Source: Streptococcus equi subsp. equi (GTDB lineage: Bacteria; Bacillota; Bacilli; Lactobacillales; Streptococcaceae). Taken from it: a stretch of DNA of 64,000 nt. Location of the stretch: NCBI GenBank assembly GCA_900637675.1, contig LR134389.1, forward strand, positions 124,001 through 188,000, given 5' to 3'. Positions 5,353 to 64,000 of this stretch are shown piece after piece. Both the position numbers and the translations under genes were made by a program. How positions within the stretch are numbered: the first letter of the stretch is position 1; every line of letters starts with the position of its first letter. The notes under the pieces were generated by a model. The model had not been told where the DNA came from and searched no databases. It saw only the letters and a list, made by a program, of their open reading frames with translations.

Positions 5353-7395
5353 ATGGTTGATAGCAAAGCAGTTGTCATTTTGATGACGTTGATGACTTAT
5401 CAAGACTTATCACTTTACGAGCTGAGTGTTAAGACAAAATTCACCATTAGAGAGATTAAGGACCGTATTGATGAGCTGAATGAGTTTTTGGCTCAGCATG
5501 AGCTCTCAGAGCTAGATGCAACAAGGTCTGGCTATCGGATCAGTCAGCAGCTTAAGGCTGAGTCAGATCATTTGTTTACGTTGATTAATGCTGAGCAGGT
5601 TTATCTTTCTCAGGCAGAGCGGATCAATCTTATCTATCTGTATACCTTTTGCCGCAGGGATTTTGTTTCAAATAGTCATTATCAGGACTTTTTAAAGGTC
5701 AGCAAGAACACAGCCTTGACAGATATTAAGGCCTTGCGGCAGAAGCTGGCAGATGTTGACTTGGAATTAAAGTATACCAGAGCAAGCGGCTATATCTTAG
5801 TTGGTGATGAGATTAATAAGCACCGGTTGGCTTTAGTAATGATTGCTACTTTGCTTAAATCTCCTATTGGCTTGTGGGCCTTGGACTATATTTTGGCTTC
5901 TTGGCACTATCAGGTGTCGTTTGAAGCGCTTGAAAAACGTGTGAGCCATTTTTATCAGACCTTTCAGATGTCTCCGATCCTTGATCGTCTGCAGGTCTGT
6001 TTGTACGCTGTCATCTTTATTTTATGTCGTTACCAAAGACGGGTTGATAGGGTCAAGCAAAGACAGGTAGTGGTTTCTGAGCAGCTGGATCAGCTAACGG
6101 CCCTTTTGGTGGCAGAAATAATGCAGCAATTGTCTCTTAAGTATCAGCTATTTGAAGCTGATGAGGCCTATTTTCAATTGCTGTTAGCGGGCTGCTTTGA
6201 GGGTGAGGGTACTGTTGGTGATGATTTCTTTGAATCACTAACCGTTGCGATTGTTGATCAAATGCAGGGGGTTGCTTTACTAAGCTTTAGTCAGGCAGAT
6301 CAGCTCAAGGAGAATTTGAAAAGGCATTTGATTCCAGCCTATTACCGTTTGCGCTATGGTTTGCCAAGTGATAATGATTATACCTTGCGGATTAAGGATA
6401 GTTATTCTGAGCTTTTTGACTTGGTAAAGCAGTCTCTGGAGCCTTTAGCCAAGGAGCTGGGTAGTCCTATACCAGATAGTGAAATTGCTTATTTTGTTCT
6501 TCATTTTGGAGGCTATTTAAAGCAGCAGGGAAGAGATTTTCATCGTCAAGCCTATCAGGCTGTGATTGTCTGTCCTAATGGTGTTAGTTCTTCTTTAATG
6601 ATCAAGGAGCATTTAAAGCTTTTATTTCCTGATATTGCTTTTCGGGGGCTTTCAAGGCTTGATCAGCTTGGGCAATTAGATAAGAGCGGCTATGATTTGG
6701 TTTTTTCAACGATACGATTAGAGACTGATAAGCCCTTTTATTTAGTCCCTATGATAATGACTGATGAGCAGGCTTTTCAGCTGGTCAGCTTGGTTAATCG
6801 TGATTTTCCAGATATTGGCTATCGGCTAGAGGTTGAAGAGCTGCTCCATCTTATCAGCTCATATGCGGTCATTCATCAAAAAGAAAAGCTGCGCTTTGCT
6901 TTGCAGCAATATTTAAGACAAGGTGTGAAAAGAAAGGATATTCGACCAGTGTTACAAGACTTAATTACCAAGAAAACCTATCAATCAACCTCAGAGCAAT
7001 TGGGGTGGAGAGAGGCTATTTATTTGGCGGCTCAGCCCTTGTTAGAGAGTGGGCAGATTCAAGCGAGCTACCCGGAGGCTATGATTGCTAAGGTTGAGGA
7101 GTTTGGTACTTTTATTAATCTAGGTAAGGGGATTGCTATCCCACATGCGAGGCCAGAGGATGGTGTGAATCAGGTAGGTATGTCGATGCTTGTTTTAGAG
7201 CACCCGATTTATTTGTTAGATGATCCTAAGCAGGAGATTCGTTTGTTAATTTGTATTGCTGCTATTGATAATGAAACACATCTAAAGGCCCTGTCTCGGC
7301 TGACGACCATTTTAAGAGACAATGAGCAGGTCAAGGCTTTACTTGCGTCTAAATCATTTGAGGATATTAAAACTATTATTGCAGAGGAGGCATAA
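5353..7395 (+). CDS. PRD-containing PTS regulator with EIIB and EIIA domains (BglG/MtlR type)
   Basis: A 680-residue transcription regulator. It has an N-terminal winged-helix/DeoR-like region (1-80), two PTS regulation domains (about 180-395), an EIIB-like domain with Cys407 in the loop VCPNGVSSS, and a C-terminal mannitol/fructose-type EIIA domain (about 540-680) with His598 in IPHARPEDG. Phosphorylation of the PRDs and EIIA/EIIB by the PTS controls activity in this family. It precedes the EIIB gene by one base and probably activates the downstream operon. No separate EIIA gene is present, so its EIIA domain may also serve transport. Confidence 0.88.
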   Translation: MVDSKAVVILMTLMTYQDLSLYELSVKTKFTIREIKDRIDELNEFLAQHELSELDATRSGYRISQQLKAESDHLFTLINAEQVYLSQAERINLIYLYTFCRRDFVSNSHYQDFLKVSKNTALTDIKALRQKLADVDLELKYTRASGYILVGDEINKHRLALVMIATLLKSPIGLWALDYILASWHYQVSFEALEKRVSHFYQTFQMSPILDRLQVCLYAVIFILCRYQRRVDRVKQRQVVVSEQLDQLTALLVAEIMQQLSLKYQLFEADEAYFQLLLAGCFEGEGTVGDDFFESLTVAIVDQMQGVALLSFSQADQLKENLKRHLIPAYYRLRYGLPSDNDYTLRIKDSYSELFDLVKQSLEPLAKELGSPIPDSEIAYFVLHFGGYLKQQGRDFHRQAYQAVIVCPNGVSSSLMIKEHLKLLFPDIAFRGLSRLDQLGQLDKSGYDLVFSTIRLETDKPFYLVPMIMTDEQAFQLVSLVNRDFPDIGYRLEVEELLHLISSYAVIHQKEKLRFALQQYLRQGVKRKDIRPVLQDLITKKTYQSTSEQLGWREAIYLAAQPLLESGQIQASYPEAMIAKVEEFGTFINLGKGIAIPHARPEDGVNQVGMSMLVLEHPIYLLDDPKQEIRLLICIAAIDNETHLKALSRLTTILRDNEQVKALLASKSFEDIKTIIAEEA

Positions 7396-7396
7396 A

Positions 7397-7684
7397 ATGG
7401 CATTAAGAATTGGTACAGCCTGTGGTTCAGGCTTAGGGTCTAGCTTTATGGTTCAGATGAATATCGAATCCGTATTAAAGGACTTGGGAGTAACCGGTGT
7501 TGAGGTGGAGCATTATGATCTTGGTGGCGCGGATCCCACAGCGGCAGATGTGTGGATTGTTGGGCGTGATTTGGCAGACTCGGCAGAGCATCTGGGAGAT
7601 GTGAGGATTTTAAATAGTATCATTGATATGGACGAATTGACTAGTCTGGTAAAGGCTATTTGCCAGGAAAAGGGGCTTGTTTAG
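7397..7684 (+). CDS. PTS EIIB component, ascorbate/lactose-type
   Basis: A 95-residue phosphocarrier. The active Cys9 lies in the P-loop GTACGSGLGSS; the rest is the usual Rossmann-like EIIB fold. ATG 7397 follows a strong GAGGAGG site, while longer upstream readings of the frame lie inside the regulator gene. It passes phosphate to a sugar held by the EIIC encoded next. The UlaB-like assignment follows from the UlaA-type EIIC. Confidence 0.88.
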   Translation: MALRIGTACGSGLGSSFMVQMNIESVLKDLGVTGVEVEHYDLGGADPTAADVWIVGRDLADSAEHLGDVRILNSIIDMDELTSLVKAICQEKGLV

Positions 7685-7696
7685 AAGGAGGATAAG

Positions 7697-9040
7697 ATGA
7701 CATTTTTACTTGATATTGTTAGCACACCAGCTATTTTGGTTGCCTTGATTGCTATTGTTGGTCTCTTACTTCAAAAAAAGCCTGCTCCTGACATTGTTAA
7801 GGGAGGCATTAAGACCTTTGTTGGGTTTTTAGTGGTTTCAGGTGGTGCAGGTATCGTGCAAGGCTCACTCAACCCTTTTGGAACGATGTTTGAGCATGCC
7901 TTTCATCTGTCTGGTGTTGTGCCAAATAATGAGGCTATTGTTGCAGTTGCTTTGACGACCTATGGGTCAGCGACAGCTCTGATTATGTTTACAGGAATGA
8001 TCTTTAATATTTTGATTGCTCGCTTTACCCGATTTAAGTATATCTTCTTGACAGGGCATCACACACTTTACATGGCCTGTATGATTGCTGTGATTATGTC
8101 TGTTGCAGGCTTGACGTCAGTGTCCTTGATTGTGTTTGGTGGGCTGGCCTTAGGGATTATCATGAGTGTTTCACCGGCTCTTGTGCAACGGTATATGATC
8201 CAGCTGACTGGTAACGATAAGGTCGCTTTGGGGCATTTTAGCTCTCTTGGTTATTGGTTAAGCGGTTTTGTAGGAGGTCTTGTTGGAGACAAAACCAAGT
8301 CAACAGAGGACATTGATTTTCCAAAGAGCCTTGCTTTTTTGCGTGATAGTACAGTAAGCATTACCTTATCAATGGCAATCATTTATTTGATTGTAGCTAT
8401 TTTTGCTGGTCCTACTTGGATTAGTAAGGAATTATCCTCTGGCACACATGGCTTGGTCTTTGCCTTGCAGTTGGCAGGACAGTTTGCTGCAGGCGTCTTT
8501 GTGATTTTAGCTGGTGTTCGTTTGATTCTGGGTGAAATTGTTCCAGCCTTCAAGGGCATTTCTGAAAAATTAGTGCCACATTCTAAGCCGGCCTTGGATT
8601 GCCCGATTGCCTATCCTTATGCCCCCAATGCAGTGCTGATTGGCTTTGTTTCTAGCTTTGTTGGTGGCCTTGTGAGCATGGCTGTGATGATCGTAAGTGG
8701 AACGACAGTGATTTTACCTGGCGTTGTGCCTCATTTCTTCTGTGGTGCCACAGCTGGTGTTATTGGGAATGCTTCTGGAGGTGTGCGCGGTGCAACTGTG
8801 GGAGCCTTTTTACAGGGTGTTCTTATTAGCTATCTTCCGATTTTCTTGATGCCTGTTTTAGGCGGCTTGGGCTTTGAGGGCTCAACCTTCTCAGATGCCG
8901 ATTTTGGCTTATCAGGTATTTTACTAGGAACACTTAACAGCATAGGTGGTGTGACAGCTATTGTGATTGGTATTTTTGTGATATTAGCTGGACTTGTTGG
9001 GCTTTCTGTTGTTGGAAAATCAGTAGCTAAGGAGGAATAA
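7697..9040 (+). CDS. PTS EIIC permease, UlaA (ascorbate) family
   Basis: A 447-residue polytopic membrane protein with about ten hydrophobic spans beginning at FLLDIVSTPAILVALIAIVG. It has the family features GGIKTFVGFLVVSGGAG and the H-x-T segment around TGHHTLYMACM. This family transports and phosphorylates L-ascorbate or related pentose-type acids and polyols. The transketolase genes downstream suggest the product enters the pentose phosphate pathway. The actual substrate cannot be read from the sequence. Confidence 0.88.
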   Translation: MTFLLDIVSTPAILVALIAIVGLLLQKKPAPDIVKGGIKTFVGFLVVSGGAGIVQGSLNPFGTMFEHAFHLSGVVPNNEAIVAVALTTYGSATALIMFTGMIFNILIARFTRFKYIFLTGHHTLYMACMIAVIMSVAGLTSVSLIVFGGLALGIIMSVSPALVQRYMIQLTGNDKVALGHFSSLGYWLSGFVGGLVGDKTKSTEDIDFPKSLAFLRDSTVSITLSMAIIYLIVAIFAGPTWISKELSSGTHGLVFALQLAGQFAAGVFVILAGVRLILGEIVPAFKGISEKLVPHSKPALDCPIAYPYAPNAVLIGFVSSFVGGLVSMAVMIVSGTTVILPGVVPHFFCGATAGVIGNASGGVRGATVGAFLQGVLISYLPIFLMPVLGGLGFEGSTFSDADFGLSGILLGTLNSIGGVTAIVIGIFVILAGLVGLSVVGKSVAKEE

Positions 9041-58811: not shown

Positions 58812-58840
58812 TTGACTATTTTTCTTAGCTGAGATATAAT
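58812..58840 (+). promoter_or_regulatory. Promoter of antisense antitoxin RNA
   Basis: TTGACT, 17 bp and a perfect TATAAT. It drives a short non-coding transcript toward the 3' end of the Hol-Tox gene. Confidence 0.8.
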
Positions 58841-58846
58841 GAAAAT

Positions 58847-58962
58847 AGAAAAAGGACAGTTGCTCAAAACAACTACCCAATGCAGAACCGTTTAAGACGG
58901 TAGCTTGTTTTTAGTTAAAAAATAACCGTTACTCGCTAAAGTTAGACGGTTATTTTTTATTG
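58847..58962 (+). ncRNA. Antisense RNA antitoxin (RatA-like arrangement)
   Basis: Predicted RNA of about 115 nt from the promoter at 58812 to the terminator formed by AATAACCGT (58921-58929) and ACGGTTATT (58946-58954). An inner hairpin ACCGTTTAAGACGGT is present. It overlaps the end of the convergent toxin mRNA, which shares the terminator. The layout copies txpA/ratA of Bacillus subtilis. Confidence 0.7.
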
Positions 58963-59054
58963 CTCATTTTTACGATAATAACAACTAAGCCAATGAGTGA
59001 AAGTAGAAAACTACCGAACCCAAGCATGAGTTGCATTGCCTCGTAAACGGACAA
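58950..59054 (-). CDS. Holin-like toxin peptide (Hol-Tox), type I TA toxin
   Basis: 34 residues: MSVYEAMQLMLGFGSFLLSL plus IGLVVIIVKMSNKK, one membrane span with a basic tail, matching the Putative Holin-like Toxin family. Starts with TTG 59054 eight bases after AAGGAG. High expression would depolarise the membrane; the antisense RNA at 58847 is expected to prevent it. A frame of 36 codons (59095-58985) with a strong GGTGGTGG site starts upstream in another frame and overlaps it, and could govern its translation. Confidence 0.82.
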   Translation of the reverse strand: MSVYEAMQLMLGFGSFLLSLIGLVVIIVKMSNKK

Positions 59055-59151
59055 TATTCGCTCCTTTCTCTTTGGATTTTAGCACTTACAGTCATAAGCA
59101 CCACCACCTTTCAGAAATTAGAGCCACCGCCTTAACTTTTCTGCAGAAACC

Positions 59152-59160
59152 ATTATACCA
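59152..59160 (-). promoter_or_regulatory. Promoter of the Hol-Tox gene
   Basis: TGG-TATAAT extended -10 on the minus strand; no clear -35. The mRNA would have a ~90 nt leader and end at the bidirectional hairpin near 58920, about 230 nt in all. Confidence 0.6.
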
Positions 59161-59333
59161 TAGTCATACGAAATAGCTGTCTGATGTTGAAAATTCAGAT
59201 GGCTTTTTTGTGTCCTTTGCTTGCAGGGAAGAAATATACCCTAAAATCGTTTTTAAGCGATTGTTTGTTGAGATGGTATATTTTTTATCGAATACGACAT
59301 AAAAATTGAATATGGTTATTCTATGACTTCTGA
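59161..59333. other. Intergenic region
   Basis: No gene seen between the Hol-Tox promoter and the duplicated leader of the lipase locus. AT-rich. Confidence 0.4.
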
Positions 59334-59530
59334 TTTATTGTATACTATTATTAGAAATTGAAAGGAGAACTTTCATGAAAAAGTCGACCAAAGCTTTTAT
59401 TGCTTTAATGATTCTCATAGGAGGGTTGCTTATGGTATTTAGTTTGAATGGTAAAATCACAGAAGAACAACAAAAAAAGGATTTGGAAACCAGCATTGCT
59501 AAGCTGCTTGTTCATGACTATGAAGGGGTT
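59334..59530 (+). repeat. Direct duplication, copy A (leader and 5' end)
   Basis: The leader with TATACT and AAAGGAGAA and the first ~50 codons of the membrane protein are nearly identical to 59989-60185, offset 655 bases. Identity falls gradually afterwards. A recent tandem duplication of the membrane-protein/lipase unit is indicated. Confidence 0.88.
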
Positions 59531-59809
59531 AAAACCATTAAATTTCAAGGATGGGGACATTCTCGTGAAACGGGTTCGTGGGGAACGACGGTGATTATTA
59601 ATGAGAGTAATCAAATGAGTTTTTCTTTTTCTAGTATAAAAACTTTAGAAGATATAGGAAGCACAAGATATAATCCCAATACTTTTAAATTGGTAGAAAA
59701 ACCTGAAACTGATTCTAAACCAAGAATTATGGATAGGATGAACGAGATTAATGCGACCTCTCTTGCAGGTGTTACTGTTATCTATTCAAATAACAATCAG
59801 GAGGATTAA
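59375..59809 (+). CDS. Membrane-anchored protein, putative lipase immunity (copy A)
   Basis: 144 residues: short N-terminus, one membrane span (AFIALMILIGGLLMVFSL), then an extracytoplasmic domain of ~115 residues (LLVHDYEGVKTIKFQGWGHS; RETGSWGTTVIIN). No lipobox cysteine. Paralogue of the protein at 60030. By analogy with the lipoprotein immunity proteins next to TslA it could protect the cell surface from the lipase; this is inference. Confidence 0.75.
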   Translation: MKKSTKAFIALMILIGGLLMVFSLNGKITEEQQKKDLETSIAKLLVHDYEGVKTIKFQGWGHSRETGSWGTTVIINESNQMSFSFSSIKTLEDIGSTRYNPNTFKLVEKPETDSKPRIMDRMNEINATSLAGVTVIYSNNNQED

Positions 59810-59810
59810 T

Positions 59811-59942
59811 ATGGCGATATCCGATAGTAGCTATAATGAGTTAGCAAGACAGACCTATAATATCGAACTAAGGAAAGCTAAATTTAATGATGTCCCTATT
59901 GTTTTAATGGAAAGATTATTAGCAGGAGAATTTAACTTATAA
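59811..59942 (+). pseudogene. Collapsed lipase gene remnant
   Basis: 43 codons after GGAGGATTAAT. Residues 1-32 (MAISDSSYNELARQTYNIEL...) match the N-terminus of the intact lipase, and the final MERLLAGEFNL matches its extreme C-terminus (QQLAGEFRAWQ). About 390 codons are missing, so an internal deletion reduced the upstream lipase copy to its two ends. Confidence 0.78.
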
Positions 59943-59988
59943 CAGATAACATTATAGAAAAACTGTTTAGCTTTATTTTTTACTCATT

Positions 59989-60185
59989 TTTATTGTATAC
60001 TATTATTAGAAATTGAAAGGAGAACTTTCATGAAAAAGTCGACCAAAGCTTTTATTGCTTTAATGATTCTAATAGGAGGGCTGCTTATGGTTTTTAGTTT
60101 GAATGGCAAAAGAACAGAGGAACAACAAAAAAAGGATTTAGAAACTAGTATTGCTAAACTGCTGGTTCATGACTATGAAGATGTC
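59989..60185 (+). repeat. Direct duplication, copy B (leader and 5' end)
   Basis: Second copy of the unit at 59334-59530, with the same leader, RBS and first codons. Confidence 0.88.
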
Positions 60186-60461
60186 AAAGAAGTTAAGTTT
60201 ACAGGCTGGGGACGTTCTCGGGAAACAGGTTCGTGGGGAACGATAGTAGTTATAAATGGAGAAAATGAAATAGGCTTTTCGTTTGATGGTTTGTCAGGAT
60301 TAGCGGATATTAGTGGGCGCTCTTATCATCCAGATACTTTTAAGTTAGTTGAGAAAAATAGTCTGGAAGAAATGGGGCCTGTGAAATATAGAATTAAAGA
60401 CATTGAAAAAGTTTCTTTAGAGGGAGTGTCAATTACGTATTCTCGTGAGAAAAGGAGTTAA
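60030..60461 (+). CDS. Membrane-anchored protein, putative lipase immunity (copy B)
   Basis: 143 residues. The span and first ~50 residues match copy A almost exactly; the C-terminal half diverges (GENEIGFSFDGLSGLADISG), as expected if specificity changed after duplication. Ends one base before the lipase ATG, so the pair is co-translated. Outward-facing immunity function is inferred. Confidence 0.75.
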   Translation: MKKSTKAFIALMILIGGLLMVFSLNGKRTEEQQKKDLETSIAKLLVHDYEDVKEVKFTGWGRSRETGSWGTIVVINGENEIGFSFDGLSGLADISGRSYHPDTFKLVEKNSLEEMGPVKYRIKDIEKVSLEGVSITYSREKRS

Positions 60462-60462
60462 T

Positions 60463-61752
60463 ATGATGATATCCGATAGTAGTTATAAGAAGTTGTCAGA
60501 ACAGGTCTATAATGTCGAACCTAGTAAAGCTAAGTCAAATGATGCCCCTATTGTTTTAAAGGGAAATCGTCTTATCGATGATAAGACGGGTAAGCAATAC
60601 CGAGTCCTCTTAGTTCAGGATAATAACAACGATGCCCATAAAATCAATGACAACGGTATGCAAGCAATGGCTGTAGCCCCTATTGTTCAAGGTGATGTCG
60701 ATACCTCCCAGGTTGTGATTGCCTATGCAGGGACAAATGCTGCGGATTCCAGAGATCTTGATACGGATTGGCAGCTGCTCATTCGGGGCAATCAAGATGA
60801 TTTAGTCAGCGGCAATCTTGATGGCGGCAATTTTGTTATTGCCGAAAACCAATTACGATCTGCTCAAAAGTTTTATCAACAAGTCAAAAGAAAGTACCCT
60901 CATTCTGCCTTAACAACCACAGGTCACTCTCTCGGAGCTTATCTAGCACTAATAGTCGCCGCAGAACATAAGATCCCAGCAACAACCTTTAATGGTCCAG
61001 ACCCTGTTCGCGGCATGTCAGCTGAAGCTATCACATGGGTTAAGGCTAATAGCAATATGTACAATAATTTCCGCATTAATTTTGATGGCATTGGCAATTT
61101 TGGTGCCTATTTTGGAACTGATGATTTGGCTATTTCTCGGAATGTCGATGCTATGCTCTTATCAGCCAACCCCTTGTATTATCACGATTTAGGAGCTTAT
61201 CGTTTTAATCAAAAGGGTCAGATTGTAGATAGAGACGGTAAGCTCATTGGAACACAATACCTTGTGAGTCGGGCCTATTTAACTGTCCTTGCCTCAAAAA
61301 AGCGTATGTCAAGCTACAATCAGCTCAAAAAACACTGGCAGTCTACCGGTAAGGGGATCAGTAGTTCTGAGGAGCTCTTTTTAGATGCGGCACAGGGAAT
61401 GATCCTAGGCTCGTCCATGGCTAAGGTTGCTCGAGAGGGGGCTGATGAGGCACTGGATCATAAAACGGTTGCCGACGCAAAGCTTATGGAAGTGTGGTCG
61501 GCGATTGATTTTAACGCTTTTCATGAGCTGCCCTATTATGAGGTGCAAGCCTTGTTTGCTTCTTATGGGATCACTTATGACCGCTTCGTCCGAGACTTTC
61601 AGGACTATACTCAATCCAAGGTCAGCAAGCTGTCAGCCTTGGCCACAGACTTTGAAAACCTGAATAGAGATATTCAGACAGTTATTGATAGCAAGCTTGA
61701 AACGGATCAACAGTTAGCAGGAGAGTTTAGAGCATGGCAGACAGAATTGTAG
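60463..61752 (+). CDS. TslA-like lipase, putative type VII secretion substrate
   Basis: 429 residues. An alpha/beta-hydrolase domain (about 40-290) has the nucleophile Ser156 in TTGHSLGAYLALIVAAEH and a later YYHDLGAYRF that may hold the His. The last ~130 residues are helical (DYTQSKVSKLSALATDFENL; RDIQTVIDSKLETDQ) without enzymatic motif, and no signal peptide is present. An N-terminal lipase with a C-terminal LXG-like helical targeting region is the reverse order of LXG toxins and matches S. aureus TslA. ATG 60463 follows AAAGGAG and agrees with the start in the remnant copy. Three helical partner genes follow. Confidence 0.8.
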   Translation: MMISDSSYKKLSEQVYNVEPSKAKSNDAPIVLKGNRLIDDKTGKQYRVLLVQDNNNDAHKINDNGMQAMAVAPIVQGDVDTSQVVIAYAGTNAADSRDLDTDWQLLIRGNQDDLVSGNLDGGNFVIAENQLRSAQKFYQQVKRKYPHSALTTTGHSLGAYLALIVAAEHKIPATTFNGPDPVRGMSAEAITWVKANSNMYNNFRINFDGIGNFGAYFGTDDLAISRNVDAMLLSANPLYYHDLGAYRFNQKGQIVDRDGKLIGTQYLVSRAYLTVLASKKRMSSYNQLKKHWQSTGKGISSSEELFLDAAQGMILGSSMAKVAREGADEALDHKTVADAKLMEVWSAIDFNAFHELPYYEVQALFASYGITYDRFVRDFQDYTQSKVSKLSALATDFENLNRDIQTVIDSKLETDQQLAGEFRAWQTEL

Positions 61753-61916
61753 AGGAAGTGGCTATCTATCGTAAGCTGCGGGAGATGGATGATGCCGAGC
61801 AGGACTTTCTGCGCCAGAAAAAAGGCTATCAGAAGCGTGAAGACAGCTTATCCGAAAGAAGACATGTCTTAGATGATTTGATCAACTCTGAGTACCAGAA
61901 GATGAGTGTTTTTTGA
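61734..61916 (+). CDS. Small helical protein 1, putative targeting partner
   Basis: 60 residues, all helical and charged (DDAEQDFLRQKKGYQKREDS). It overlaps the lipase end by 19 bases. Similar in size and character to the Lap/Tla partners that bind the helical targeting domain of type VII substrates. Confidence 0.68.
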   Translation: MADRIVEEVAIYRKLREMDDAEQDFLRQKKGYQKREDSLSERRHVLDDLINSEYQKMSVF

Positions 61917-62125
61917 AGCGTTTAGACCTATCTGCCAATGCTGCGTCAGATTTTTTCAAGGAACTAGATCGCTTAAAGGATCAATCCAACGCAGAGTTTC
62001 ACCTCCAGCGGGCAGCTCTTGAAGAGGAGCGAGCACAGTCAACCAAGACTTTTCGTCAAGAGCAGGATCAAAGAGAGACAGAGTTATTAGATATGAGGAG
62101 AGCTTATGCTAATACCAATAACTGA
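61913..62125 (+). CDS. Small helical protein 2, putative targeting partner
   Basis: 70 residues, TTG start at 61913 overlapping the previous stop; helical (SANAASDFFKELDRLKDQSN; HLQRAALEEERAQSTKTFRQ). No clear independent RBS, so coupling is likely. Confidence 0.62.
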   Translation: MKRLDLSANAASDFFKELDRLKDQSNAEFHLQRAALEEERAQSTKTFRQEQDQRETELLDMRRAYANTNN

Positions 62126-62396
62126 GTATTATATCGAAGAAGAATACGCCTATGCCCTGAGGCTAATGCGTCAAATGCTGGAGCGTCAAAGGATTGCCAC
62201 AGTGGCTAGGCTTGCGAACAGCCAAGGTGAAGCGATCAAAAAAACGTTTAAAGACCAGATCAAAGCGACTGCCAGCCAAACTAAGGAAAGCCTTCAGATC
62301 ATGGAAGGGCAGCTAGATACGGCCATAAAAGGAGCGGTCAGAGATCAGCTGGAGCAGGTCGTAAAGAAGAAGCTGCCAAAATACAACAAGCTATAG
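62106..62396 (+). CDS. Small helical protein 3, unknown
   Basis: 96 residues, helical, basic end (VVKKKLPKYNKL). ATG 62106 after GGAGAGC, overlapping the previous gene by 20 bases. Last gene before the IS; the locus may once have continued. Confidence 0.65.
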   Translation: MLIPITEYYIEEEYAYALRLMRQMLERQRIATVARLANSQGEAIKKTFKDQIKATASQTKESLQIMEGQLDTAIKGAVRDQLEQVVKKKLPKYNKL

Positions 62397-62591: not shown

Positions 62592-63395
62592 TTAGTGAAA
62601 GGATTTAGTTCTGTATTGCACAGGGCTAAGTCCTTTTAGCTTTGCTTTAATGCGTTTGTTGTTGTAGTAAAAAATGTAATCTGTAATAGCTTGTTCAAGC
62701 TCATTAAGGGATTGATAAGTTGTCTCAAGGCCGTAAAACATCTCAGATTTGAGAATACCAAAGAAGGACTCCATCATCCCATTATCTGGACTATTTCCCT
62801 TGCGAGACATGGATGGACGAATGCCTTTAGTCTCCAAAAAGTGATGATAAGACTGATGTTGATATTGCCAGCCTTGATCGCTGTGGAGAATCGTTCCATT
62901 GTACGAATCCGCTGGAAAAGCCTTCTCAAGCATGGTTTGTACTTGCTTCAAGTCAGGCGATCGAGACAGGGTGAAATCAATAATCTCACTGTTATAGCCG
63001 TCAAGAACAGGCGATAGATAGAGTTTCCCCTCAGGTAAGGTAAATTCCGTCACATCGGTATAGCACTTCTCGTAGGGCTTAGAACCTTCAAACTGACGTT
63101 TAATCAGATTATCAGCCTTTTTGCCAACCTCACCTTTGTAAGAAGAATACTTGCGCTTACGACGGATACGAGCTTTTAAGCCCATGACAGTCATCAAACG
63201 TTGTACTTTTTTGTGATTGACGATAAAACCACGATTTCTTAGTTCCAGATGAATGCGACGATAGCCATAATTGCCATGATGTTCATCATAGATGCCTTGA
63301 ATGAGCTCCTTTAAGTCCATGTCCTTATCTTCTTGAGCTAGTTGCTTGACTTGATAATAATAGGTTGACCGCGATAAATCAAGGATTTCAAGCAA
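62592..63395 (-). CDS. IS3-family transposase OrfB (copy 3)
   Basis: 267 residues from the first Met in frame; the frame is open further upstream and joins orfA through the A-AAA-AAG slip site at 63485-63491. DDE motifs [18 protein letters not shown] and [12 protein letters not shown] are intact. Its last ~190 residues equal copy 2 except for a few positions. Confidence 0.92.
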   Translation of the reverse strand: MLEILDLSRSTYYYQVKQLAQEDKDMDLKELIQGIYDEHHGNYGYRRIHLELRNRGFIVNHKKVQRLMTVMGLKARIRRKRKYSSYKGEVGKKADNLIKRQFEGSKPYEKCYTDVTEFTLPEGKLYLSPVLDGYNSEIIDFTLSRSPDLKQVQTMLEKAFPADSYNGTILHSDQGWQYQHQSYHHFLETKGIRPSMSRKGNSPDNGMMESFFGILKSEMFYGLETTYQSLNELEQAITDYIFYYNNKRIKAKLKGLSPVQYRTKSFH

Positions 63396-63418
63396 AGTTG
63401 CTAGAGAAAATTGACCGA

Positions 63419-63934
63419 TTAATTCTTGGATGATTTCTGTTGCTCTTTGAGCTTTGCTTCGTCCCTCAACCGGTATTCTCTCAGCTTTTTTAGCACAGCA
63501 TTCTCCGCTCTAAGGTAGTCTAATTCTTTTTGGAGTCGCTCCAACTCTGTCATTTGTTCTAAAGTCTTCTTTGGTTGACGTCCCATCTTTGGTGGCCTCC
63601 CTCTTCTTTTCTCAAGAATAGTATAGCCGTTTTTCTTGTATTGCGCTATCCACCTTGAAAGCATACTAGAATTTGGTAAAGCATAGTCTAAGGACGTCTG
63701 TTTTTGAGATTGACCATCAATCAGAACTTTATCTATTATCTCTTGCTTCAGTTCTGGAGAATAATAACTATTCTTACCTTTTTGGACAATGGCTAACCCA
63801 TACCTGTCAATCAGGCGAATCATGTATTTGAGGTCAGATTCTGCAATACTAAACTTTTCTGATAAGCATTTAATGGACTTTCCAATGTGCCGTAGCTCAT
63901 AGATTTGAACCTTGTCTTCATAACTCAATGTCAT
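63419..63934 (-). CDS. IS3-family transposase OrfA (copy 3)
   Basis: 171 residues starting [23 protein letters not shown] plus leucine-rich coil. Start 63934 chosen by match with copy 2; another Met five codons upstream is possible. Clearly diverged from copy 2 OrfA. Confidence 0.9.
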
Positions 63935-64000
63935 AAAAATAGCCCCCAATTGTTAGATTTTATGTCTAACTTTTGGGGGGCAGTTCACTTAGGGATAATC

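What the first reader, a model, noticed from the sequence alone, without database searches (positions are those of the whole stretch)
59375..62396. TslA-like lipase locus with membrane-anchored putative immunity genes and three helical partners
Seen: a 429-residue protein with a GHSLG lipase motif at residue 156, no signal peptide, and a helical C-terminus, preceded by single-span outward-facing proteins and followed by overlapping small helical genes. Known: S. aureus TslA is a type VII-secreted lipase with N-terminal enzyme and C-terminal targeting region, small helical Tla partners and a lipoprotein immunity factor. Inferred: a streptococcal version that uses a transmembrane anchor instead of a lipoprotein for immunity. 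No EssC or EsxA gene is in the window.
Basis: partly seen in the sequence, partly recalled or inferred. Interest (0 to 1): 0.85.

Follow-up and report, generated by a model that had tools for sequence, protein, structure and literature searches.

The report
Stranded streptococcal type VII lipase cassette
A Streptococcus that looks like the horse pathogen S. equi carries a cousin of a known staphylococcal antibacterial lipase cassette, with a membrane-anchored rather than lipid-anchored shield protein, but its export machinery and one helper gene are broken here.

Summary
The locus is real: a divergent member of the TslA ("reverse" type VII lipase) kind. Profile comparison with presumed staphylococcal Tsl loci links the lipase (E 9e-33, helical tail included) and both small helical genes (E 6e-8, 6e-7); crossed controls fail.

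Two corrections. There are two helical partners, not three: the 60-aa and 70-aa ORFs are halves of one gene, a single ORF in 48 of 58 cassettes but interrupted here and in at least two others. And this genome keeps essC but lacks esxA, esaA and the start of essA beside an IS copy, as published for S. equi (PMC2654543, passages). The cassette is probably stranded here.

New is the branch: in 53 of 54 cassettes with an identified upstream gene it is membrane-anchored without lipobox, in a family not detectably related to TilA/DUF576. Its ectodomain co-varies mainly with the enzyme domain; both partners co-vary with the helical tail. Immunity genes and lipase 5' stubs pile up upstream. Lipase homologues co-occur with EssC (86 of 106 versus 30 of 229 genomes). 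Activity, immunity and secretion are untested.

The parts
59334..59374 (+). upstream segment repeated identically before the second immunity gene (59989-60029)
   Evidence: blastn: start of the alignment identical
59375..59809 (+). membrane-anchored immunity-family protein, copy 1 (144 aa)
   Evidence: 64% identical to copy 2, one N-terminal hydrophobic span, no lipobox
59811..59942 (+). 43-codon stub matching the lipase N-terminus (relic of an immunity + lipase-start unit)
   Evidence: such stubs recur in relatives
60030..60461 (+). membrane-anchored immunity-family protein, copy 2 (143 aa), directly upstream of the lipase
   Evidence: model: helix 5-24 as anchor, low confidence there; then helix 30-48 and a beta sheet
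60463..61752 (+). Tsl-type lipase, 429 aa: lipase domain (about 1-265) plus helical tail (about 270-428)
61734..61916 (+). first half of partner 1 (Tla1-like); frame lost in a T-rich stretch near its end
61913..62125 (+). second half of partner 1, separate frame
62106..62396 (+). partner 2 (Tla2-like), 96 aa, uninterrupted
62592..63949 (-). IS3-type element bounding the cassette; one of 40 near-identical copies; another copy abuts the broken type VII locus

Best explanation
The locus is a divergent streptococcal form of the Tsl cassette: immunity - lipase - partner 1 - partner 2. Inferred working in relatives with an intact system: the two small helical proteins bind the helical C-terminal tail of the lipase and form a composite targeting signal for the type VIIb exporter; outside, the N-terminal lipase domain attacks phospholipids of competing bacteria; the producer is shielded by a protein tethered by one N-terminal membrane span whose ectodomain faces outward and binds the enzyme domain. 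The enzyme half and its immunity gene appear to exchange as a unit, leaving older immunity genes and lipase 5' stubs upstream. In this genome export probably does not work: esxA and esaA are missing, essA lost its start, and partner 1 is frameshifted; lipase and shields remain as stranded genes. Shown: homologies, gene order, co-variation, interrupted genes. Inferred: enzyme activity, export, immunity, orientation, module exchange.
For: Lipase profile versus six DUF576-linked Tsl proteins of unnamed, presumably staphylococcal genomes: hhalign 99.9%, E 9e-33, aligning lipase core and tail. Partner 1 vs Tla1 94.7%, E 6e-8; partner 2 vs Tla2 92%, E 6e-7; crossed controls 0.1% and 0.7%. Model: alpha/beta hydrolase whose 11 PDB matches at E 0.001 or better are fungal lipases or feruloyl esterases and one T6SS lipase effector (9cys), followed by helices 270-294, 301-347, 372-428. 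Over 335 Streptococcaceae genomes: EssC above cut-off in 86 of 106 with a lipase hit vs 30 of 229 without; WXG100 in 93 of 106 vs 37 of 229. 31 of 114 tallied lipase places lie within 25 kb of an essC or WXG100 gene. Upstream gene membrane-anchored without lipobox in 53 of 54 cassettes where one was found. Partial Mantel on 40 cassettes: immunity ectodomain with enzyme domain 0.56 (with tail 0.19); partner 1 with tail 0.72 (enzyme 0.00); partner 2 with tail 0.81 (enzyme -0.14). Own genome: EssC intact, no WXG100, EsaA only as a weak match elsewhere, EssA matched only from residue 47. TslA facts from PMC10730906 (abstract and sections 6, 7, 9, 12 read).
Against: 10 of 106 genomes with a lipase hit have neither EssC (fragments counted) nor WXG100, two of them (G172, G178) with cassette-like loci. 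TM-scores of the PDB matches are low (0.24-0.31 by model length). The G-x-L motif of TslA is not exact in the window (K297-G298-I299; relatives mostly G-G-L). Three of six yardstick lipases have no partner genes directly behind them (L153-L155). Immunity homology to TilA is not shown. The immunity ectodomain co-varies most with lipase residues 1-100, the stretch next to the gene, so linkage alone could explain it. Co-occurrence p-values ignore relatedness. A genome that lacks esxA may never use the locus.
Confidence: 0.8

Rival explanations
1. A pure relic (compatible with the family assignment): a decaying cassette in a host-restricted lineage with no current role.
For: Partner 1 frameshifted; a second copy at 1563 kb has lipase and partner 1 both interrupted and no partner 2 ORF was listed; type VII genes lost beside an IS; the IS is present in 40 copies; esaA absent from all 26 S. 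equi tested but present in 138 of 140 S. zooepidemicus (PMC2654543, passages).
Against: Lipase, both immunity genes and partner 2 in the window are uninterrupted, as are lipase and both partners at 1039772 and 1858587.
Confidence: 0.5
2. The immunity genes are kept for defence: in a strain that no longer exports its lipase they still protect against lipases of related type VII-armed streptococci.
For: Two uninterrupted anchored genes in the window and three at 1858587; additional immunity copies are common in the family.
Against: No test of selection was made; uninterrupted lipases remain too.
Confidence: 0.3
3. The split partner 1 is functional as two peptides (a TTG start overlaps the first stop), or the frame is sometimes bypassed at the T-rich stretch, so that three products work together.
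For: The two ORFs overlap by four bases and together cover the whole gene. Two other loci also have partner 1 interrupted near its middle: L125 (Cerasibacillus, an in-frame stop) and L092 (a Streptococcaceae MAG, frameshift).
Against: 48 of 58 cassettes have one ORF and the own paralogue reads through this join. L125 and L092 also have a shortened or interrupted partner 2, i.e. general decay or sequence error. My choice of 70-160 aa ORFs favoured unsplit copies.
Confidence: 0.12
4. A lipase acting inside the cell or on host tissue, not an antibacterial type VII toxin.
For: Only homology, not activity, was shown; such lipases have many roles.
Against: Cassette order, partner homology, an anchored neighbour co-varying with the enzyme domain, immunity arrays; TslA of S. 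aureus was not required in a mouse abscess model (section heading only).
Confidence: 0.07

Closest known systems
TilA-TslA-TlaA1-TlaA2 cassette of Staphylococcus aureus (Tsl1 family, PMC10730906)
   Same: N-terminal lipase, C-terminal helical tail, two small helical genes downstream, immunity gene directly upstream, tandem immunity copies; lipase and both partner families homologous by profile to DUF576-linked loci
   Different: Immunity is a ~110-residue ectodomain on a membrane span, not a DUF576 lipoprotein, with no shown homology; partner 1 is split and the exporter incomplete in this genome
TipC, immunity to the LXG toxin TelC in Streptococcus intermedius (PMC6193138, passages)
   Same: Streptococcal type VII immunity protein with an N-terminal membrane span, with a divergent copy nearby
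   Different: Different toxin class; ectodomain about 180 residues (23-203/204); TipC does not appear in the 50 of 536 fold matches listed for the window protein
SA1320 family (NCBIfam NF047388)
   Same: Shares the lipase domain (E 5e-17, residues 83-259; 29 of 38 sequences of A4 match)
   Different: Score 61.5 is far below the family cut-off of 230; the family profile is 644 positions long and is matched only over positions 2-159

Membership tests
Tsl1 (TslA) reverse type VII lipases | N-terminal lipase domain with serine catalytic site | tested here: met
   Ser156, Asp208, His241 invariant in 38 sequences; Pfam Lipase_3 exactly at its cut-off of 22 bits; fold matches lipases; E 9e-33 to DUF576-linked Tsl
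Tsl1 (TslA) reverse type VII lipases | Helical C-terminal targeting tail | tested here: met
   Helices 270-294, 301-347, 372-428; tail aligned; targeting itself untested
Tsl1 (TslA) reverse type VII lipases | G-x-L motif in the tail turn | tested here: inconclusive
   Window reads T-G-K-G-I-S-S; relatives mostly G-G-L-S-S; in the paper the Leu change impaired secretion and the Gly changes did not
Tsl1 cassette | Two small helical partner genes (Tla1, Tla2) downstream | tested here: inconclusive
   Both families present and homologous, but partner 1 is frameshifted in this genome
TilA-type cassette | DUF576 lipoprotein immunity upstream | tested here: not met
   No DUF576 match in the genome (own row); no lipobox; profile comparison 20%, covering only the span and the stretch after it
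Tsl1 (TslA) reverse type VII lipases | Type VIIb machinery in the same genome | tested here: not met
   Own genome: EssC present but no WXG100, EsaA only as a sub-cut-off match elsewhere, EssA truncated. Over the family it is met in 86 of 106 genomes for EssC
Tsl1 (TslA) reverse type VII lipases | EssC-dependent secretion, phospholipase A activity, neutralisation by the immunity protein | not testable with these tools
   Needs bench work

The most novel reading that the evidence does not exclude
Reverse type VII lipases form a mirror-image polymorphic toxin system: the variable enzyme half and its membrane-anchored immunity gene are swapped as one 5' module onto a constant 3' module (tail plus two partners), by recombination in the conserved lipase 5' region, so that displaced immunity genes with lipase stubs accumulate upstream, the reverse of the downstream orphan arrays of ordinary polymorphic toxins (the latter recalled, not looked up). 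Two unrelated immunity families serve one toxin family: DUF576 lipoproteins, and this short anchored family, which itself swaps between span and lipobox.
Probability: 0.55. Interest if true: 0.65.

Novelty: new variant of a known kind. Interest (0 to 1): 0.55.

Why it matters
It carries a characterised staphylococcal toxin class into a large part of the streptococci (106 of 335 sampled Streptococcaceae genomes have a homologue of the lipase, some of the lipase domain only), gives it a second immunity family with a different anchor, and offers a natural experiment: a lineage that lost parts of its exporter but keeps toxin and shield genes. The co-variation result proposes, from sequence alone, which part of the toxin each neighbour gene goes with, and this can be tested directly.

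Tried and rejected
Rejected: 'three partners' (halves of one gene).

Rejected as unproven: immunity as a DUF576/TilA homologue. DUF576 is not among the 25 of 77 Pfam families shown for 37 members; the solved-structure search by sequence gave 7 matches, best E 0.22; no fold match at E 0.001, best 0.42; profile comparison 20%. Pfam gave weak DUF1310 (12 of 37 members, best E 0.0016) and DUF1433 (5 of 37, best 0.0018) matches, not pursued. NCBIfam models of rickettsial Rlip (4 of 38, best E 2e-6) and XopAP (2 of 38, best 0.0045) also match lipases; I take this as the shared lipase domain (listing only). Partners: no Pfam family is common among those shown (25 of 86 and 25 of 61); for partner 1 the commonest is DUF3958, 4 of 30, best E 0.012, and WXG100 matches 2 of 30, best 0.0032. 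Viral contigs gave four partial matches.

Linkage: splitting the lipase into five pieces showed that the immunity ectodomain tracks residues 1-100 best, so physical linkage is not excluded.

Not found in print: no paper on streptococcal TslA relatives or on membrane-anchored immunity to them turned up in the searches (open-licence PubMed Central full text only; most hits seen as listings). PMC12558993 (abstract and passages) names TslA only for Staphylococcus, Enterococcus and Listeria; PMC11217815 (passages) adds reverse lipases in Neobacillus and Paenibacillus; PMC10765036 (passages) summarises TslA; PMC13253547 holds none of 'lipase', 'TslA', 'reverse'.

Limits: no complex prediction; one genome per species, so S. 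zooepidemicus could not be compared; the species of the window genome is inferred, not given; a cleaved signal peptide of the immunity proteins was not excluded.
Full report
What is there. Window 59375-62396 on the + strand holds two 143-144 aa proteins with one N-terminal hydrophobic span, a 43-codon lipase stub between them, a 429-aa lipase, and small helical ORFs, between two genes that I read as ctsR and clpC (by eye, not searched) and an IS3-type element. The lipase starts at ATG 60463, right after the second anchored protein. The unit 'anchored protein + lipase start' is tandemly repeated (76% over 587 columns, with identical sequence just upstream).

Two partners, one broken. In 48 of 58 cassettes the lipase is followed by one ORF of 88-140 aa, and in 43 of 58 by a second of 85-118 aa. 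The window's 60-aa and 70-aa ORFs match profile positions 1-60 and 59-130 of the first (an alignment of 28 of the 33 partner-1 references). The genome's own 90%-identical copy at 1563 kb reads through the same place, although that copy is itself interrupted elsewhere. The other nine cassettes without a partner-1 ORF are mixed: L125 and L092 have partner 1 interrupted near its middle, L066 ends at the contig end, L077 and L107 have weak or partial matches, L105 only partner 2, and L079 (first copy), L085 and L088 nothing recognisable. The 'three helical partners' are thus best read as a frameshift in a T-rich stretch just before 61916; a functional split is a minor rival.

Family. Streptococcal and staphylococcal forms are far apart, so I used DUF576 (PF04507) as a landmark: 10 of 398 sampled genomes of the class carry it. 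Around it (nine of the ten genomes) lie lipase genes; in L146, L151 and L152 they are followed directly by genes of about 110 and 95 aa, in L150 the lipase is in two pieces but both small genes follow, and in L153-L155 no such genes lie directly behind the lipase. Profile comparisons (single comparisons, not database searches): lipase 99.9%, E 9e-33, tail included; partner 1 vs Tla1 94.7%, E 6e-8; partner 2 vs Tla2 92%, E 6e-7; crossed partner comparisons 0.1% and 0.7%.

Fold. The lipase model (38-sequence alignment, mean pLDDT 82.8) is an alpha/beta hydrolase plus a tail of long helices. Foldseek against the PDB gives 11 matches at E 0.001 or better: fungal lipases and feruloyl esterases and the T6SS lipase effector 9cys; TM-scores by model length are low, 0.24-0.31. 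The anchored protein (37 sequences, pLDDT 85.7, about 56-63 over the first 30 residues) has a helix and a small beta sheet after the span and no PDB match at E 0.001. Some lipase relatives carry GYSQ in place of GHSL around the serine (L055, L057, L058).

Immunity anchor. Of 58 full-length cassettes (made non-redundant by the lipase tail only, so near-duplicates remain; window included), 54 have an upstream gene by my length and distance limits; 53 of these have a hydrophobic span without lipobox, 1 has a lipobox. Among 200 distinct immunity-family ORFs, 157 are span-only, 37 match a lipobox pattern (a few doubtful) and 6 have no clear span. In one array (L054) similar ectodomains come with either a Cys or a Tyr at the lipobox position. 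Listeria, Enterococcus and Lactococcus members are span-anchored too, so this is not a streptococcal peculiarity. Homology to DUF576 is not shown: 20%, E 0.001, over the span and the stretch after it.

Who goes with whom. On the 40 of 58 cassettes with all three neighbours (the window drops out because partner 1 is split), partial Mantel correlations were: immunity ectodomain with enzyme domain 0.56, with tail 0.19 (both p 0.001); partner 1 with tail 0.72 (p 0.001), with enzyme 0.00 (p 0.51); partner 2 with tail 0.81 (p 0.001), with enzyme -0.14 (p 0.99). Removing near-duplicates (32 left) changed little. Against a purely functional reading, the immunity ectodomain tracks lipase residues 1-100, next to it, most strongly (r 0.69). 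The stubs (48 distinct, in 30 of the 136 sequences scanned, some overlapping or cut by contig ends) cover mainly that region.

Type VII link. Over 335 Streptococcaceae genomes, 106 have a lipase hit, 116 an EssC above cut-off, 130 a WXG100. EssC: 86 of 106 vs 30 of 229; WXG100: 93 of 106 vs 37 of 229; 10 of 106 have neither, EssC fragments counted. Fisher p-values (2e-34, 2e-37) ignore kinship, and the 106 include hits to the lipase domain alone. 31 of 114 tallied places are within 25 kb of a listed essC/WXG100 place. In the S. cuniculi contig the 55%-identical cassette lies about 5 kb from esxA and 8 kb from essC, start to start.

This genome. EssC is intact (562200-566024). WXG100: 0 matches among 13 candidates. 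EsaA: only weak matches at 2212 kb, not at the locus. EssA matches from residue 47 on, directly beside an IS copy. The IS has 40 near-identical copies. PMC2654543 (passages) reports for S. [quoted passage not shown] equi but 138 of 140 S. zooepidemicus. I infer that the genome is S. equi subsp. equi. EsxA is required for export of LXG toxins in S. intermedius (PMC13355648, abstract); whether reverse lipases need it is unknown.

Verdict. A new variant of a known kind: a Tsl-type lipase cassette with a different, span-anchored immunity family, common in streptococci, probably not exported in this strain.

Noticed in passing
window 58837-59167: RatA antitoxin RNA (RF01776, 58837-58924 +) facing an rli28 match (RF01492, 58985-59167 -): looks like a type I toxin-antitoxin locus between clpC and the cassette; by eye the - strand holds a short hydrophobic peptide frame.
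   Followed up: partly
L038 (Streptococcus phage phi-SsuFJNP8_rum, MN270261) 5562-7998: A complete cassette (145 aa anchored, 447 aa lipase 53% identical, 132 aa, 96 aa) lies just upstream of the terminase genes of a S. suis phage record, so the system can ride on phages.
   Followed up: partly
L046 8077-11538 (G303, type VII locus): A long lipase frame with one stop inside and a different C-terminus sits between essA and esaB with two lipoprotein-type immunity genes and stubs; lipase frames of about 790 aa occur near esxA/essC in other genomes such as G078, G228, G230, G314.
   Followed up: no
G000 1039772-1040962 (L039) and 1858587-1859777 (L040): Two more cassettes of the family with uninterrupted lipase and both partners in the same genome; L040 has three anchored immunity genes, L039 none found upstream.
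   Followed up: partly
L125 7277-7882 and L092 1149-1674: Partner 1 is interrupted near its middle in two unrelated loci as well (in-frame stop; frameshift), close to where the window's copy breaks; decay, sequence error or a tolerated split cannot be told apart.
   Followed up: partly
L113-L115, L119-L122, L127: The lipase domain also appears in Leifsonia (Actinomycetota) loci; their gene context was not examined.
   Followed up: no
L005 16050-17380: Behind the own essC lie a 109-aa protein, two small ORFs of 144 and 107 aa and a short ORF ahead of transposase-like remnants, as if an LXG-type toxin locus had also been cut short (families not tested).
   Followed up: no
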